DNA of 64,000 bases, taken from positions 1 to 64,000 of the forward strand of contig JAUWYY010000009.1 in the NCBI GenBank assembly GCA_030615605.1. Direction: 5' to 3'. Below, in pieces: positions 33,945 through 40,125 of this stretch; the stretch's first letter is position 1, and every line of letters begins with the position of its first letter. The notes beneath the pieces are model-generated. The model saw only the letters and a program-made list of their open reading frames with translations. It had not been told where the DNA came from and ran no database searches. The translations under genes were made by a program, and so were the position numbers. Origin of the DNA: a bacterium. Its GTDB lineage: Bacteria > Armatimonadota > Zipacnadia > Zipacnadales > Zipacnadaceae.

Positions 33945-33946
33945 GC

Positions 33947-33980
33947 AAGGCCGGCACGACTACTGCCGCACCGGCCTTGG
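33947..33980 (+). terminator. Inverted repeat after the sugar transferase, possible terminator
   Basis: CAAGGCCGG (33947-33955) pairs perfectly with CCGGCCTTG (33972-33980), 2 nt after the stop codon. There is no U-tract after it, so termination would not be by the classic intrinsic mechanism. Confidence 0.4.
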
Positions 33981-34066
33981 CTCCAGCTTTACTCTGGCTT
34001 GTCTAAGGCTGACCAGACAGGCCTATCGCGGGCCGTGCCTCGTTTCCAGGGTGCTCAACGCTCAGC

Positions 34067-34774
34067 TCACTCCTTCCGCCAGTTCCCCTCAATGCCCACG
34101 ATGGTGAAGGTCTGCTCTGAGTACGGGCCCTTGACCTGCACGGTCCAAGCGCCATCAGGGCCCCGCGTTACAGATTGAACCGAAACACGGAAGTCCTCCG
34201 CCCGGTCATGCAAGCCCAGGAAGGGGCCCGGGTCTAGCAGGCCCAGCACTGGTATGACAACCATGTGTGCGGCATTGCCCGTGGTGAAGACTTGAATCAG
34301 GGCCTCCGTCGCAGTCCGAGACGTCGGCGGGATTGCCACCACGCCGACGGCACCAGGCATCAGACGCGCGGCCAAGTAACTGGCCTGCTTGGAGTCACGC
34401 ACCAGCTGGAACTCGTCCAGAGCCAGGCCTGACCACACGGCCCATGTGTACGGGATGGACGGGTCAGTGGAGCGCACCTCGTAGCGCGTGATCTCCCCAG
34501 ACCACGTGCCTTCCGGCTCCGGAGTGGCGCACTGGACCTCCAGGCGAAAGAGCGCCTTCTCCAAGACTATGGGAACCTCCCGGGATTCCCCTTCAGGCGT
34601 AGTAATGCTCAGGGTCCCGCGCTCCAGCAGGACTACCGGCCGACCCAGCGGATCAAGTCTCACGACCGTTGGCCCTGCTAGTGGTGCTGGTGCGGCCTCA
34701 CCCGCTGTCAGCGACACCGCCACCCCCAACAAGGCAACAGCCGTCCAGCAAGCTATGGCTATGGTCCGTATCAT
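34067..34774 (-). CDS. Secreted partner protein of the tandem array, copy 3 (divergent)
   Basis: 235 residues with a signal peptide (IAIACWTAVALLGVAVSLTAG) and AGGAGG before ATG 34774. It is homologous to the products at 35281 and 36597: VPIVLEKALFRL, WSGEITRYEVRSTDPSIPYTWAVW align with VPVVMEKQIFQL and WSGRVWCYEFRSGDPDVPHSYSFW. It is shorter and lacks the otherwise identical C terminus ending FDGEQWHAE. It is the last member of a three-fold tandem array of transglutaminase-like/partner pairs. No function is known. Confidence 0.65.
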   Translation of the reverse strand: MIRTIAIACWTAVALLGVAVSLTAGEAAPAPLAGPTVVRLDPLGRPVVLLERGTLSITTPEGESREVPIVLEKALFRLEVQCATPEPEGTWSGEITRYEVRSTDPSIPYTWAVWSGLALDEFQLVRDSKQASYLAARLMPGAVGVVAIPPTSRTATEALIQVFTTGNAAHMVVIPVLGLLDPGPFLGLHDRAEDFRVSVQSVTRGPDGAWTVQVKGPYSEQTFTIVGIEGNWRKE

Positions 34775-34804
34775 CGTTCTCTCACCTCCTAGATTTGGGG
34801 TGTC

Positions 34805-35296
34805 TCACCAGTCCTCATCCGAGAATCGCACGTCAACAGCGGGGGGACTTGACCGTCTTCGCCATTGGAACTGGTACGGATCGGGGCTTCGGTTCGGGTC
34901 GTAGATCAACGCTTCCCAGGCATCCGCGTTTGGAGTGTAGTCGGAGGCGCCCGTGGTTGTTACCCCGTACGATGGATCGTAGTAGGTTCCATCCCCGGTT
35001 CGGTGGACGATATAGTGCAAAGCAAAAAGCTTCTCGTATGGTGGGTTCGTGTTCTGGCCGGGTTCGCCGTTAACCGTAACATCCAGGTCGTCGGTCCGTG
35101 AGTTCACGCCGTACTTCCAGGGGTCGTAGCCAGAATAGCTGGGCATTGCGTCATCGAAGGTGATGTTCTTCACGCCAAACTGGGAATAGTTTGTCGGCGG
35201 CAGCACGCGCGTCCTCTTCACGTTCGCTACATTGTTCGCTACCAGGCATTCCTTGAACAACTCCGCCCAGGCACAGACACCTACTCTGCATGCCAC
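34805..35296 (-). CDS. Truncated transglutaminase-like protein, copy 3
   Basis: From GTG 35296 it reads 163 residues, starting just before the catalytic cysteine (GVCAWAELFKECLVANN). His and Asp of the transglutaminase triad are seen in LFALHYIVH and TYYDPSYG. The N-terminal half present in the copy at 37476 is missing. The start overlaps the 3' end of the partner gene (35281) by 16 nt, an arrangement identical to that of copy 2, so the overlap is the tandem-duplication joint. Enzyme activity without the missing part is doubtful. Confidence 0.55.
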   Translation of the reverse strand: MACRVGVCAWAELFKECLVANNVANVKRTRVLPPTNYSQFGVKNITFDDAMPSYSGYDPWKYGVNSRTDDLDVTVNGEPGQNTNPPYEKLFALHYIVHRTGDGTYYDPSYGVTTTGASDYTPNADAWEALIYDPNRSPDPYQFQWRRRSSPPAVDVRFSDEDW

Positions 35297-36132
35297 TGTT
35301 CGCCATCGAATACCAAGGTGTATACTTTGTCTGATTTGATGCCGGATACACTGACGACCAAGTTCCTGTTCTCTTTCGAGATTGCTTCGATCGTTATGTG
35401 CGCAGGGCCTGTAGGGTATGCAAAAGGCCATATATGGAATAGAGGTACGACCGGCACAAGCCTAAGGCGGCCTGCCCCATAGCCCACGAACCCTCCTCTC
35501 AGCGCTATTTCGGAAAGCCCCTCGGGCTGTGGTGGGTCCTTTATCTCGATCCATACAAATTCTCTTAGGGCTACCATTTTGTCGTTGGGTGCGGAAACAT
35601 CCATGAGGCCTACGAAGCGGTTTCGGGACACAGCCAGAAACTTGGCCCCTTGTTCACTGCTGAACAGTTCCAATTCCCGCTCTGCCCAGAAGTAGTAGCG
35701 ACCTGGAGGCGGAGGGGCTTGCCGCAGTTCTGCAATATCATGGGTCCAAAAAGTGTAACTGTAGGGTATCTGGGGGTCCGTGGACTGCAACTGGTAACAC
35801 ACAAGTTGGCGTGACCATTTTGTTACAGTTTCTGCTTCGTTGAGTTGCGCCTCGGCGTCGTAGGTCGTTTTCCGCATTATGACAGCCACCTGCTTGCTGG
35901 GTTCGCCGGGTTCTCTCCAGAATACCCAGCTTCGGTCCAGTGCGAGCACTTTGGTTGTTCCCTCATTGAGTCCAAGTATCTCCACTTGTTCCTGCCAGAC
36001 CGGATCACCGAGTACTTCTGAGTTGGGGGCATCTGTCGGGACCGGTTGTTCAGCTCCTTGAGCCAAGAGGCTCGCGCAGATGAGCGTCAACACCATAAGT
36101 AACCTGCCACCATTGTAAATGTACCGTCCCAT
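35281..36132 (-). CDS. Secreted partner protein of the tandem array, copy 2
   Basis: 283 residues with a signal peptide (LLMVLTLICASLLAQGA) and AAAGGAGGCAG before ATG 36132. It is homologous to 36597-37451 over its length. The last about 25 residues (VVSVSGIKSDKVYTLVFDGE and the end QWHAE) are identical between the two. The middle part has diverged more. It is followed with 16-nt overlap by transglutaminase-like copy 3. No known domain recognised; it is probably periplasmic or exported together with its neighbour. Confidence 0.65.
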   Translation of the reverse strand: MGRYIYNGGRLLMVLTLICASLLAQGAEQPVPTDAPNSEVLGDPVWQEQVEILGLNEGTTKVLALDRSWVFWREPGEPSKQVAVIMRKTTYDAEAQLNEAETVTKWSRQLVCYQLQSTDPQIPYSYTFWTHDIAELRQAPPPPGRYYFWAERELELFSSEQGAKFLAVSRNRFVGLMDVSAPNDKMVALREFVWIEIKDPPQPEGLSEIALRGGFVGYGAGRLRLVPVVPLFHIWPFAYPTGPAHITIEAISKENRNLVVSVSGIKSDKVYTLVFDGEQWHAE

Positions 36133-36153
36133 CTCTCTGCCTCCTTTTACTCG

Positions 36154-36612
36154 TTAAGGAGTAAACACCAACGGATCGTCACTCACTGGCTGCGCTGGCC
36201 GCCAATGCGCTATAGGTATCCCGCTGTGGTCGAACTCCCTGAACCAGCCTTCGACGTATGTCGCTGTGTACGTGTCCGGGTCGTCCGTCGTGACGCCGTA
36301 AGAAGGATCATAGTATGTGCTTCCAACCTTAACGACGCGGTGATAGTTGAACAGCTTTCCCTGCGGAGTTGCCATATTCTGACCGGGTATCCCAGCGACG
36401 GATGTGTCAAGGTCGCTGGTGTCATATATCCAGGGATCATACTGAGGGTAATCCCAAGTGGGAGGATCAACAAAGTCGAAATTCTTGACGCCGAATCCCT
36501 CGTCCGGAGCTTGTGCGTTCGCCATAGCTATGGCGCTGCCGGAGATGTTGTTCGCCAGCAAGCATTCCTTGAACAACTCCGCCCAGGCAGAGACACCTAC
36601 TCTGCATGCCAC
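36154..36612 (-). CDS. Truncated transglutaminase-like protein, copy 2, catalytic Cys changed to Ser
   Basis: 152 residues from GTG 36612. It aligns with copy 3 and with the C-terminal half of copy 1, but the catalytic position reads GVSAWAELF (codon TCT) instead of GVCAWAELF (TGT in copy 3). The His and Asp positions remain (LFNYHRVV, TYYDPSYG). A true transglutaminase or cysteine protease would be inactive with this change. It overlaps the partner gene (36597) by 16 nt at the duplication joint. Confidence 0.5.
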   Translation of the reverse strand: MACRVGVSAWAELFKECLLANNISGSAIAMANAQAPDEGFGVKNFDFVDPPTWDYPQYDPWIYDTSDLDTSVAGIPGQNMATPQGKLFNYHRVVKVGSTYYDPSYGVTTDDPDTYTATYVEGWFREFDHSGIPIAHWRPAQPVSDDPLVFTP

Positions 36613-37451
36613 TGCTCGCCATCGAATACTAAGGTATAGACCTTGTCTGATTTGATACCCGATACACTAACAACTAAGTTCCCGGCTTCGTCCCTTGATA
36701 TGTCTTCGATTGTGATATGATGGGGACCTACGGCATATGCAAACGGCTCGTCTCCGAAGAGATCTACCACAGGGACGGGCCTCCACTGTTCTGCACCTCT
36801 GCCGAAGGTGCCTCCGCTCATGGCGACCCCCGAAATCGACCAGGACAGCACGGGTGCCTTTTGCACACTCATAAGGTATTCCTTTAAGGCTACTACCTTG
36901 TCGTTAGTTTTAGACACATCCATCAATAGTACGCCCCCGTAGTCCCGGGATACCCCTATAAACTTATCGCCATTTTCCAAGCTAAAGAACTGCAGCTCAT
37001 CCGGGGGCCAGCAAATAGCCCCCTCTCTTTGGGGCGCGTCCGGCATCCAGAACGAATAGCTATGCGGCACATCAGGATCGCCGGAACGAAACTCGTAGCA
37101 CCAAACCCGGCCGGACCACTCATTGGTGCTCTCACGATCCTCGATTATGCCCCTGAGTTGGAAAATCTGTTTTTCCATGACAACAGGAACCCGCTTGGTT
37201 TGCCCGTCTGGCTGGGTGGTCAAAAAGTGATCCGGCCTCAAGGTAAGTGATTTGGTAGCTACCTTGTTCAGTTGCACTATCTGCACTCGATAGTCTACCA
37301 GGGGCTGAGTGGCCGCCGGCCGTGGTTGCTGCTCGGCGACCGTCGTGTCCGTGGCGGCGCTCTCCTCGCCCGCCAAGCCCACCGATAGCATCCAAGCGCC
37401 CACCCCGAACGTACAAGCGATCAAACCTATGACTATAGTCTTGGTCCTCAT
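36597..37451 (-). CDS. Secreted partner protein of the tandem array, copy 1
   Basis: 284 residues: signal peptide (IGLIACTFGVGAWMLSVGLAG), a low-complexity spacer with AEQQPRPAA, then the shared domain with KRVPVVMEKQIFQLRG, CYEFRSGDPDVPHSYSFW and the C-terminal FDGEQWHAE. ATG 37451 follows GGAGG. It lies 24 nt after transglutaminase-like copy 1, so the original unit was transglutaminase plus partner in one operon. No database family is recognised. Confidence 0.65.
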   Translation of the reverse strand: MRTKTIVIGLIACTFGVGAWMLSVGLAGEESAATDTTVAEQQPRPAATQPLVDYRVQIVQLNKVATKSLTLRPDHFLTTQPDGQTKRVPVVMEKQIFQLRGIIEDRESTNEWSGRVWCYEFRSGDPDVPHSYSFWMPDAPQREGAICWPPDELQFFSLENGDKFIGVSRDYGGVLLMDVSKTNDKVVALKEYLMSVQKAPVLSWSISGVAMSGGTFGRGAEQWRPVPVVDLFGDEPFAYAVGPHHITIEDISRDEAGNLVVSVSGIKSDKVYTLVFDGEQWHAE

Positions 37452-37475
37452 CGTACTCTAACCTCCACTTTGTTA

Positions 37476-38201
37476 TCAATGCGAAAAATCTAACGCGGGG
37501 TCGCCTACCTCAACTTCACTCCAAACGGGAATATCATAACCAGGTGGGTAACGATATTGCACATCGTTCCATGCATCGACTGATGCATCTGTGTACGCCT
37601 TCTTTGCAGTGCTGTTGTCTGCGATGGTCTTGCCATATGCAGGGTCGTAATACGTACCTCCCACGTAGACCATGCGGTGGTAGTTGAAGAGCTTCGCAGC
37701 CGGAGTATCCATGTTTTGTCCGGCGAGCCCCGTTACACCGGTATCGAGGTCGCCGGTAACATAGCAGAATCTGCCCCAAATCCCCGGATCATAGGTCGGT
37801 GTGCCAAAGCCAATGTTTTTCACTCCCAACCCCCACCACGTCCCTGGTTCATCCGCCGTAGCTATGGCGCTGCCCGAGATGTTGTTCGCAAGGAAGCACT
37901 CGTTGAGGAAATCCGCCCAGGCGTTGCATGTACCATCTTGCTCATCCAAGAGCTCGGCGGTGGTCGTATTGCCGTGCCCGGTGGAATCCTGGTAGTAATG
38001 CAAGTCTCGCAAATAGAGTTTGCTCGTCTCATCCCACGCGTGAACGTTGGCAGGGCCACTAAAGTTAGCCCAGGTGTCGGTTATACAGGCGCTTTCAGTG
38101 GTAGCGAGGCTACCCTTGGTGGCTAAGTACAGCACAGTACGGTAGTCAGTCGCGCCGGCCGGATCGTCGAGGGTGATGAATACTTCGTTCTCACTTGTCA
38201 T
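37476..38201 (-). CDS. Transglutaminase-like protein, copy 1 (longest copy, 5' end damaged)
   Basis: 241 residues from ATG 38201. The N-terminal part (ENEVFITLDDPAG ... YRTVLYLATKGS) is followed by the transglutaminase-like core with catalytic Cys in DGTCNAWADFL, His in LFNYHRMVYVG, and Asp in TYYDPAYG. The same frame stays coding-like upstream to a TGA at 38270-38268 (EIEWYISRDGGCTWLDTT), and would continue if one base of the C5 run at 38259-38263 were removed. So the gene has lost its natural start, including any signal peptide. Proteins of this type usually sit outside the cell; here the export signal is gone. Confidence 0.6.
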   Translation of the reverse strand: MTSENEVFITLDDPAGATDYRTVLYLATKGSLATTESACITDTWANFSGPANVHAWDETSKLYLRDLHYYQDSTGHGNTTTAELLDEQDGTCNAWADFLNECFLANNISGSAIATADEPGTWWGLGVKNIGFGTPTYDPGIWGRFCYVTGDLDTGVTGLAGQNMDTPAAKLFNYHRMVYVGGTYYDPAYGKTIADNSTAKKAYTDASVDAWNDVQYRYPPGYDIPVWSEVEVGDPALDFSH

Positions 38202-38293
38202 TGTGGTGTCAAGCCACGTGCACCCGCCATCACGGGAAATATACCACTCGATCTCCAGCCCCCAGTATCAGCCCATACCGCTTGACGTGGTTG

Positions 38294-38626
38294 TCAAATG
38301 CATTCGAACATTCCACATTGGTTATAGTTACTTCGCTCCCATTCACTGTCGCAGTGGTTGCGCATCTCCCCCAGAACGAACATAGCCGCCCGCACTGACT
38401 CACGTCTTGCCTGGTGGTTTTCCTCACTGTCAACAATACTTATGAGCTGAGAAATCAAGTCTGTTCGAGCCGCAAGTAACTCCTGCTTCGCCTCCTCTCT
38501 TGTTGACGCGTTGTTGGAAAGCAGTCTGTTGATAGCCGGCTCTTTCGGCTGTGGCTGCGCCAAACCGATGCAGAGCAGAACAGCCACACAAAGCAGCACT
38601 AGCACTAACTCCCTACCTGAGAACAT
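38294..38626 (-). pseudogene. HEAT-type gene, copy C, truncated by fusion
   Basis: It starts like the two complete copies (MFSGRELVLVLLCVAVLLCIG, PKEPAINRLLSNNASTREEAKQELLAARTDLISQL) and matches them up to LGEMR, residue about 88. After that the frame enters foreign sequence and stops. In another frame, the sequence beyond the joint (near 38350-38365) reads VNGSEVTITNVECSNAF and continues toward the transglutaminase gene. The copy is a recombination remnant, not a functional gene. Confidence 0.65.
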
Positions 38627-38664
38627 GTCGAATCTTCCTTGCTACAGAGTAATCAGCCTTCTGC

Positions 38665-39300
38665 TCAGCCCTGGTCAACGTTGGTCTGTCGCTGTCTGAT
38701 ACTCAGGAGCCTGCCCCGACTGCTGTGGAGGCGCTCTCGCTTCTTAGTGTCCTGTTCTTTGGCGATGGCGTCCGCCAACATGGCCGAAGCCGCATCGCGT
38801 TCTCTGAGTTCAATCAAGACGCGAATGCAAGCCGCCTGCTCCCTGACATTATAAGTCGTTGCCAGCTTGCCGATGATCGCCTTGAGGCACGGCTCGCCAA
38901 TCTTTACCAGCGCTTCGACAGCGGGCACCTGGCTCAGCGGCCCTGAACCCAACCGATGCGGCGTCGCTGTAAGGACCGTCGGCTCGTCAGCGAAGGCTAT
39001 ATATTTGACTAGCACCGACACCGCCTCGGTGGCCCGCATCTCCCCCAATATGAACATAGTCGCCCGCACTGACTCACGTCTTGTCTGGTGGTTTTCCTCA
39101 CTGTCAACAATACTTATGAGCTGAGAAATCAAGTCTGTTCGAGCCGCAAGTAATTCCTGCTGCGCCTCCTCTCTTGTTGACGCATCCTTGGAAAGAAGTC
39201 TCTTGACAGCCGGCTCCTTTGGCTGTGGCTGCGCCGAACCTATGCACAGCAGAACCGCCACCCAAAGCGTCAGTAGCACTATCTCCCTACCTGAGAACAT
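38665..39300 (-). CDS. Secreted HEAT-repeat-like protein, copy B
   Basis: 211 residues with a signal peptide (IVLLTLWVAVLLCIGSAQ). Helical repeats with the HEAT-type rhythm are visible: REEAQQELLAARTDLISQLISIV, RRESVRATMFILGEMRATEAVSVLVKYI, PAVEALVKIGEPCLKAIIGKL, REQAACIRVLIELRERDAASAML. Such repeats bind other proteins. AAGGA precedes ATG 39300. It is a close tandem duplicate of copy A, including the intergenic DNA upstream (GAAGATTCGAC before the ATG in B and C). Confidence 0.75.
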   Translation of the reverse strand: MFSGREIVLLTLWVAVLLCIGSAQPQPKEPAVKRLLSKDASTREEAQQELLAARTDLISQLISIVDSEENHQTRRESVRATMFILGEMRATEAVSVLVKYIAFADEPTVLTATPHRLGSGPLSQVPAVEALVKIGEPCLKAIIGKLATTYNVREQAACIRVLIELRERDAASAMLADAIAKEQDTKKRERLHSSRGRLLSIRQRQTNVDQG

Positions 39301-39338
39301 GTCGAATCTTCCTTGCTATAGAGTAATCAGCCTTCTGC

Positions 39339-40010
39339 TCAGCTCTGGTCAACGTTGGTCTGTCGCTGTCCGATACTCAGGAGCATGTCCAGACTGTTGT
39401 GGAGGCGCTCTCGTTTCTTGAGGTCCGTCTCCTGGGCGATGGCGTCCCCCAACATAGCCGAAGCCGCGTCACGTTCTCTGAGTTCAATCAAGACGCGAAT
39501 GCAAGCCGCCTGCTCCCTGACATCATAAGTCGTTGCCAGCTTGCCGATGATCGCCTTGAGGCACGGCTCCCCAATCTTTACCAGTGCTTCGATGGCCGGC
39601 CGCTCGTCCAGGGGCCCCGAACCCAATAGGTGAGTCCTCCTTGCGATGGTGACGCGCACCGATGCGGGTTCCTCACCAGATGGCAAAACGTACGGGAACG
39701 CTACACATGTCACCAGTACGTCCACCGCCTCGAGGGCCCGCATTTCCCCCAAGATGAACATAGCCGCCCGCACTGACTCACGTCTTGTTTGCTGGTTTTG
39801 CTCATTGTCAACAATACTTATGAGCTGAGAAATCAAGTCTGTTCGAGCCGCAAACAGTTCCTGTTTGGCCTGTTCTCGAGTTGTCTCGTCATCGGAAAGT
39901 AGTCTCCTGACAGCCGCCTCATTTGGCTGTGACTGCGCCGAACCGATGCACAGCAGAACCGCCCCGCCAAGCAGGACTGCCACCAGTACCAAGGTCTTCC
40001 AGTCACACAC
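39339..40010 (-). CDS. Secreted HEAT-repeat-like protein, copy A
   Basis: 223 residues from GTG 40010 (AGAGGGTG at 6 nt), with a signal peptide (LVLVAVLLGGAVLLCIGSAQ). It has the same helical repeats as copy B and a 15-residue longer loop (PYVLPSGEEPASVRVTIARR). The three copies A, B and C lie head to tail on the minus strand before the transglutaminase array. Probably periplasmic; no partner known. Confidence 0.75.
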   Translation of the reverse strand: MCDWKTLVLVAVLLGGAVLLCIGSAQSQPNEAAVRRLLSDDETTREQAKQELFAARTDLISQLISIVDNEQNQQTRRESVRAAMFILGEMRALEAVDVLVTCVAFPYVLPSGEEPASVRVTIARRTHLLGSGPLDERPAIEALVKIGEPCLKAIIGKLATTYDVREQAACIRVLIELRERDAASAMLGDAIAQETDLKKRERLHNSLDMLLSIGQRQTNVDQS

Positions 40011-40125
40011 TATCAACACCCTCTTTCTAGTAGCCCGGAAGGCTACTGTAGGTCCCATGTGGTTTCCGTCATCCCCTGGGCCTACTAGACAAGGCCGACC
40101 GGCTCGCGCCGCACCTGCCCGAGCG

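What the first reader, a model, noticed from the sequence alone, without database searches (positions are those of the whole stretch)
34067..38201. Three-fold tandem array of transglutaminase-like enzyme plus secreted partner
Units of about 1.3 kb repeat: transglutaminase-like gene, then a signal-peptide protein. The joints are identical: the 3' end of the partner (FDGEQWHAE) overlaps the truncated enzyme by 16 nt, with the enzyme cut just before its catalytic cysteine. Partner 3 has a different C terminus. So unequal crossing-over produced the copies, and the partner may have been selected while the enzyme decays. The pair itself, an exported enzyme with an exported companion of unknown family, looks undescribed.
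Basis: partly seen in the sequence, partly recalled or inferred. Interest (0 to 1): 0.75.

Follow-up and report, generated by a model that had tools for sequence, protein, structure and literature searches.

The report
Silent enzyme–partner cassettes in Armatimonadota
A 6-kb inserted stretch in an uncultured sediment bacterium holds three head-less copies of a transglutaminase-like enzyme, each followed by an exported partner protein; relatives suggest these are spare tips of a family of secreted enzymes whose business ends are swapped together with a matching, probably protective, partner.

Summary
Three transglutaminase-like ORFs alternate with three exported partners on the minus strand (34067-38267); TG2 and TG3 start one codon after the catalytic Cys position; their joints are 90% alike over 135 nt. 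Simple unequal crossing-over is not supported: cassette bodies are only about 50% identical, so the copies are old and only the joints were recently exchanged. The enzymes are not shown to be exported: even TG1 has no signal peptide or Shine-Dalgarno site, because its own 5' end is fused out of frame to a HEAT gene; all three partners have both. The array (33945-40118) is an island absent from a close relative. A second locus in the genome matches the array at 90% until about 65 nt before the Cys codon, then carries a different tip and partner. In Ca. Zipacnadum vermilionense, TG tips share a signal-peptide/FlgD_ig stalk with C39, C25/CHAT-like and DUF7689 tips, and tip classes sampled more than once keep their own partner class. 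Best reading: orphan tip-plus-partner cassettes of a polymorphic secreted-effector system, partner = cognate inhibitor/immunity protein. Toxicity and inhibition are inferred, untested. New variant of a known kind.

The parts
33945..40118 (.). inserted island holding the whole array
   Evidence: In close relative G005 the two flanking convergent genes (83-84% aa identity) are adjacent with 32 bp between the aligned ends; here they are 6,174 bp apart. The island ends share an imperfect direct repeat resembling the 3' end of the sugar-transferase gene (local score 52, best of 300 shuffles 36).
39339..40058 (-). HEAT-repeat-like exported protein, copy 1
   Evidence: weak HEAT hits below cut-off
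38665..39300 (-). HEAT-like exported protein, copy 2, with SD
   Evidence: HEAT_2 24.0 bits, below the 27.7 cut-off; SD AAGGA
38294..38626 (-). HEAT copy 3, truncated and joined at about 38360, out of frame, to the TG gene
   Evidence: the same joint with 100% identity (about 38395-38295) is present in locus C40
37476..38267 (-). TG1: transglutaminase-like domain with complete Cys-His-Asp, lacking start, leader and SD; extra G near 38263 relative to C40
36597..37451 (-). partner 1 (284 aa, leader peptide, SD GGAGG)
36154..36612 (-). TG2: C-terminal fragment starting one codon after the Cys position; His and Asp kept
35281..36132 (-). partner 2 (283 aa, leader, SD AAGGAGG)
34805..35296 (-). TG3: C-terminal fragment; His and Asp kept
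34067..34774 (-). partner 3 (235 aa, leader, SD AGGAGG)
37854..37922 (-). shared stretch at the start of cassette 1 (begins GCCTGGGCGGA, phase 0); 87% identical to 36520-36588
36520..36588 (-). shared stretch at the start of cassette 2
35232..35272 (-). shared stretch at the start of cassette 3 (78% identical to that of cassette 1)
37993..39225 (-). segment 90% identical (1,236 columns) to the second locus C40; similarity ends about 65 nt before the catalytic Cys codon

Best explanation
The array is a set of orphan C-terminal cassettes of a polymorphic secreted-effector system of Armatimonadota. Full effectors (seen in the relative Ca. Zipacnadum vermilionense) are Sec-exported proteins with a FlgD-Ig stalk and an exchangeable C-terminal enzyme tip, followed by a gene for an exported, tip-specific partner. 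In this genome the tips lost their carrier: each cassette is [TG tip from just after the catalytic Cys + partner gene]. The partner is most likely the cognate inhibitor or immunity protein, acting outside the cytoplasm, and is expressed on its own; the tip fragments are silent. The 41-69-nt similar stretches at the start of every cassette, all in the same codon phase, would let homologous recombination exchange or delete cassettes and join a silent tip to an upstream part that supplies the Cys. Shown: array, joints, island, conserved-upstream/variable-downstream boundary, shared stalk and class-matched partners in the relative, SD/leader asymmetry. Inferred: partner inhibits tip, tips are silent, recombination re-arms them, use against other bacteria.
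For: Conserved upstream/variable tip: the window and C40 are 90% identical through HEAT and the TG N-part to 37993, with no DNA similarity in tip and partner after that. The relative's stalk occurs with TG, C39, C25/CHAT-like and DUF7689 tips; a full-length one (L089, 815 aa) begins with a signal peptide. Class matching: TG-partner in 8 of 8 TG ORFs; CHAT-like tip with PepSY partner in two genomes (partners 55% identical); DUF7689 tip with the same partner family twice. TG and partner distances correlate (Mantel r 0.56, exact p 0.018). Joints recently exchanged, bodies old. Fragments lack SD and leader; 7 of 8 partners have SD. Cassette starts in one codon phase, 3 nt after the Cys codon. Solitary partner genes exist, e.g. 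L030. Island absent in a relative. Precedents: orphan Rhs tips lacking start and export signals, deployed after recombination (PMC3967940); TG and C39 toxin tips, HEAT immunity, exported lipobox immunity Imm65 (PMC3482391).
Against: No toxicity or inhibition is shown. Stalk plus peptidase tip also fits ordinary secreted exoenzymes; extracellular peptidases are described for this class (PMC10290634). No carrier effector was found in this genome (assembly 92.7% complete), so it may hold only remnants. Partner relatives occur without any TG in G030, G037 and G019, and a Bacteroidetes TG relative has no partner. The Mantel signal leans on two close pairs, and the closest TG pair between genera (w3 and C72b) has very different partners. 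TG N-part differences between the two loci look selected (8 of 11 at third positions, p 0.009), which fits poorly with long silence. DUF7689 and CHAT-like pairings come from few copies.
Confidence: 0.55

Rival explanations
1. Ordinary secreted exoenzymes with dedicated inhibitors or chaperones. The stalk proteins digest or crosslink environmental protein; the exported partner keeps the enzyme inactive until outside. Arrays are duplicated gene families with decaying copies, and no conflict with other bacteria is involved.
For: Tips are mostly peptidases on PKD/FlgD_ig stalks; one partner class carries PepSY, the peptidase-propeptide domain; extracellular peptidases are reported for Zipacnadia.
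Against: Does not by itself explain decapitated tips always followed by an intact partner, solitary partners, recent exchange limited to joints, or the sharp conserved/variable boundary before the Cys.
Confidence: 0.25
2. Decay after tandem duplication: the pair was duplicated by unequal crossing-over, the enzyme is dying and the partner is kept for its own function.
For: TG fragments have no SD; one G insertion in TG1.
Against: Bodies about 50% identical while joints are 80-96%; fragments are open over 140-160 codons despite saturated synonymous divergence and keep His/Asp motifs; the same kind of Cys-less tip followed by a partner occurs in another genus with a different joint (L025 946-1458).
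Confidence: 0.12
3. The TG fragments are expressed as separate subunits, by translational coupling to the overlapping partner stop codon, for example as scaffolds or decoys that bind partners.
For: 16-nt gene overlaps with a GTG in phase; open frames; conserved His/Asp motif.
Against: No SD; loss of the nucleophile; the overlap is explained by the position of the joint.
Confidence: 0.08

Closest known systems
Orphan rhs-CT/immunity modules (Salmonella LT2; Koskiniemi et al. 2014, PMC3967940)
   Same: Tip fragments downstream of a main gene, without initiation or export signals, each linked to its own small gene; recombination with the main gene deploys the orphan
   Different: Here the tip is cut at the catalytic Cys rather than before the whole domain, no main gene was found in this genome, the partner is exported, and no RHS repeats were seen
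Polymorphic toxin systems (Zhang et al. 2012, PMC3482391), Sec/T2SS type
   Same: Signal peptide and shared N-part with exchangeable tips, including transglutaminase and C39 classes; adjacent variable partner; HEAT immunity and one exported lipobox immunity family known
   Different: FlgD and PepSY are not mentioned in the held text of that paper; toxicity unknown here; phylum Armatimonadota
Transglutaminase-like superfamily (PF01841)
   Same: G-x-C..A helix, then His and Asp-Pro in order
   Different: Below Pfam cut-offs; profile comparison aligns only the Cys helix and is not significant
Propeptide-type inhibitors (PepSY, PF03413)
   Same: One partner class in the relative contains PepSY next to C25/CHAT-like tips
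   Different: The TG partner itself has no PepSY or any other known domain

Membership tests
Polymorphic toxin system | Export signal and conserved N-terminal carrier | tested here: met
   Met in the relative (L089 815 aa with leader and FlgD_ig over cut-off); NOT met in this genome, where no stalk match was found and no TG ORF has a leader
Polymorphic toxin system | Different C-terminal enzyme domains on one shared N-part | tested here: met
   Stalk shared (about 40-78% identity in most pairs) between TG, C39, DUF7689 and CHAT-like proteins; boundary in window versus C40
Polymorphic toxin system | Adjacent tip-specific partner gene | tested here: met
   TG 8/8; CHAT-like/PepSY in two genomes; DUF7689 twice
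Polymorphic toxin system | Orphan tip-partner cassettes and solitary partner genes | tested here: met
   TG2, TG3, L025 fragment; L030 solitary partner
Polymorphic toxin system | Tip is toxic and partner neutralises it | not testable with these tools
   needs experiment
Transglutaminase-like superfamily | Cys-His-Asp triad in order | tested here: met
   Present in TG1, C40, L025, L017, L026 and both Bacteroidetes relatives; Cys absent in register in TG2, TG3 and L025 fragment
Transglutaminase-like superfamily | Pfam PF01841 score over cut-off | tested here: not met
   No hit for TG1-3; Bacteroidetes relative 14.6 bits against 23; hhalign P 0.049 over 30 columns
Transglutaminase-like superfamily | Fold | tested here: inconclusive
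   Model mean pLDDT 51.7, no PDB match with E below 0.001

The most novel reading that the evidence does not exclude
A polymorphic effector family in Armatimonadota with FlgD-stalk carriers, peptidase/transglutaminase tips and exported tip-specific inhibitors, in which the recombination stretch lies right behind the catalytic cysteine, so that stored tips are inactive by construction and become enzymes only after joining a carrier that supplies the Cys.
Probability: 0.3. Interest if true: 0.75.

Novelty: new variant of a known kind. Interest (0 to 1): 0.55.

Why it matters
If true, interbacterial-conflict machinery of the polymorphic-toxin kind reaches an uncultured phylum for which one library search found a single paper naming both, with a carrier/partner set that looks undescribed, and with a storage trick (tips stored without their nucleophile) that would explain where the joints fall. 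The partner family and the PepSY/C25 pairing give directly testable inhibitor-enzyme pairs.

Tried and rejected
Pfam and NCBIfam on partners and TG ORFs: nothing significant. PDB by sequence for both profiles: nothing. Partner model good (pLDDT 82.8, mostly strands) but no PDB match with E below 0.001. TG model poor; not used. hhalign of TG against 28 PF01841 frames of relatives (two or three of those frames were evidently mis-trimmed): only the Cys helix aligned, not significant, though ahead of the controls. Viral contigs: no TG relative; the partner alignment was too variable to search. GC of the island 0.560 against 0.576-0.587 in the flanks: uninformative. Unequal crossing-over as the sole cause was rejected.

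Full report
Observation. On the minus strand of the window the order is HEAT1, HEAT2, HEAT3 (truncated), TG1, partner 1, TG2, partner 2, TG3, partner 3. TG1 carries Cys, His and Asp at 37928, 37679 and 37646; TG2 and TG3 begin at the stretch GCCTGGGCGGA, which lies 3 nt behind the Cys codon in TG1 and is in phase 0 in all three.

How the copies arose. Aligned cassette by cassette, the three bodies are about 30-70% identical in DNA (mostly near 50%), while the joints between cassettes 1/2 and 2/3 are 80-96% identical and the similarity falls off within some 50 nt on the TG side. A recent unequal crossing-over would make whole units alike. The data instead fit old, diverged cassettes whose joints were exchanged recently. 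Synonymous sites are saturated in most tip and partner comparisons.

Second locus and island. The same genome has a second locus on contig C40 (L024): HEAT, TG with complete triad, one partner. From 39225 to 37993 the window is 90% identical to it; after that, about 65 nt before the Cys codon, tip and partner have no DNA similarity. The HEAT-TG joint is 100% identical over about 100 nt in both loci. In relative G005 the two genes flanking the window array are neighbours with 32 bp between aligned ends, so 33945-40118 is an insertion. An imperfect repeat of the neighbouring gene's 3' end is found at the far end, and at C40 a 136-bp copy (92%) of the 3' end of a gene that I read as lpxC, from memory of its sequence, lies beyond the TG locus.

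Relatives. It holds four TG ORFs and eight partner-family genes, many on short contigs. Every TG ORF is followed by a partner. One (L025 946-1458) is again a Cys-less tip, this time joined to the beginning of a stalk. The stalk (FlgD_ig over cut-off in several) occurs with C39 (34.4 bits, cut-off 24), DUF7689 (46.8, cut-off 22.6) and CHAT-like tips; one stalk protein of G021 has Peptidase_C25 over cut-off. The CHAT-like call in L087, L029 and L090 is my reading of the sequence, not a Pfam hit. The CHAT-like tips in G009 and G014 are followed by PepSY-domain proteins 55% identical to each other; both DUF7689 tips in G009 are followed by related proteins (31%). Stalk matches occur in 18 of 46 genomes of the class; none in G000.

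Expression signals. All three window partners and the C40 partner have Shine-Dalgarno sites, as do three of four in G009; TG1, TG2, TG3 have none at their candidate starts. Leaders are read by eye; several G009 partners have a lipobox-like Cys (sequences).

Interpretation. These features together are those of orphan tip/partner cassettes of polymorphic toxin systems: shared carrier, variable tip, tip-matched partner, fragments without initiation or export signals (PMC3967940, PMC3482391). I commit to that reading at 0.55. Inhibition by the partner, toxicity, silence of the fragments and re-arming by recombination are inferences. The chief rival is a set of secreted exoenzymes with inhibitors.

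Limits. Everything rests on metagenome-assembled genomes; short-read assembly near repeats may err, and the single-G difference near 38263 may be a sequencing error. TG-partner co-divergence is modest (r 0.56, p 0.018, eight pairs). Selection on the TG N-part rests on 11 differences.

Noticed in passing
window 38294-40058: A second tandem array, three HEAT-like exported proteins (73-85% alike in protein), sits directly upstream in the same island; HEAT is a known immunity fold, so these may be partners of lost effectors.
   Followed up: partly
L024 14348-14483 (G000:C40 109347-109482): A 136-bp copy (92%) of the 3' end of an lpxC-like gene lies on the far side of the C40 locus; similar in kind to the repeat at the window island ends.
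   Followed up: partly
L087 2685-5336; L090 3414-6357: C25/CHAT-like stalk protein followed by a PepSY-domain exported protein in two genomes: a candidate peptidase/inhibitor pair.
   Followed up: partly
L031 49-4299 (G030): Tandem secreted proteins with near-identical leader (MQRQSA/MKRQSA) and different bodies, two of them TG-partner relatives, without a TG gene.
   Followed up: no
L036 7827-10855: Bacteroidetes bacterium SZAS-92 has two tandem TG relatives with complete triad and no partner.
   Followed up: no
L088 562-2266: A stalk-array tip with no Pfam family followed by a small membrane-anchored protein; possible further tip/partner class.
   Followed up: no
L027 3-4050: Two metalloprotease-like ORFs (HExxH-type motifs; the second without stalk) followed by different exported proteins.
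   Followed up: no
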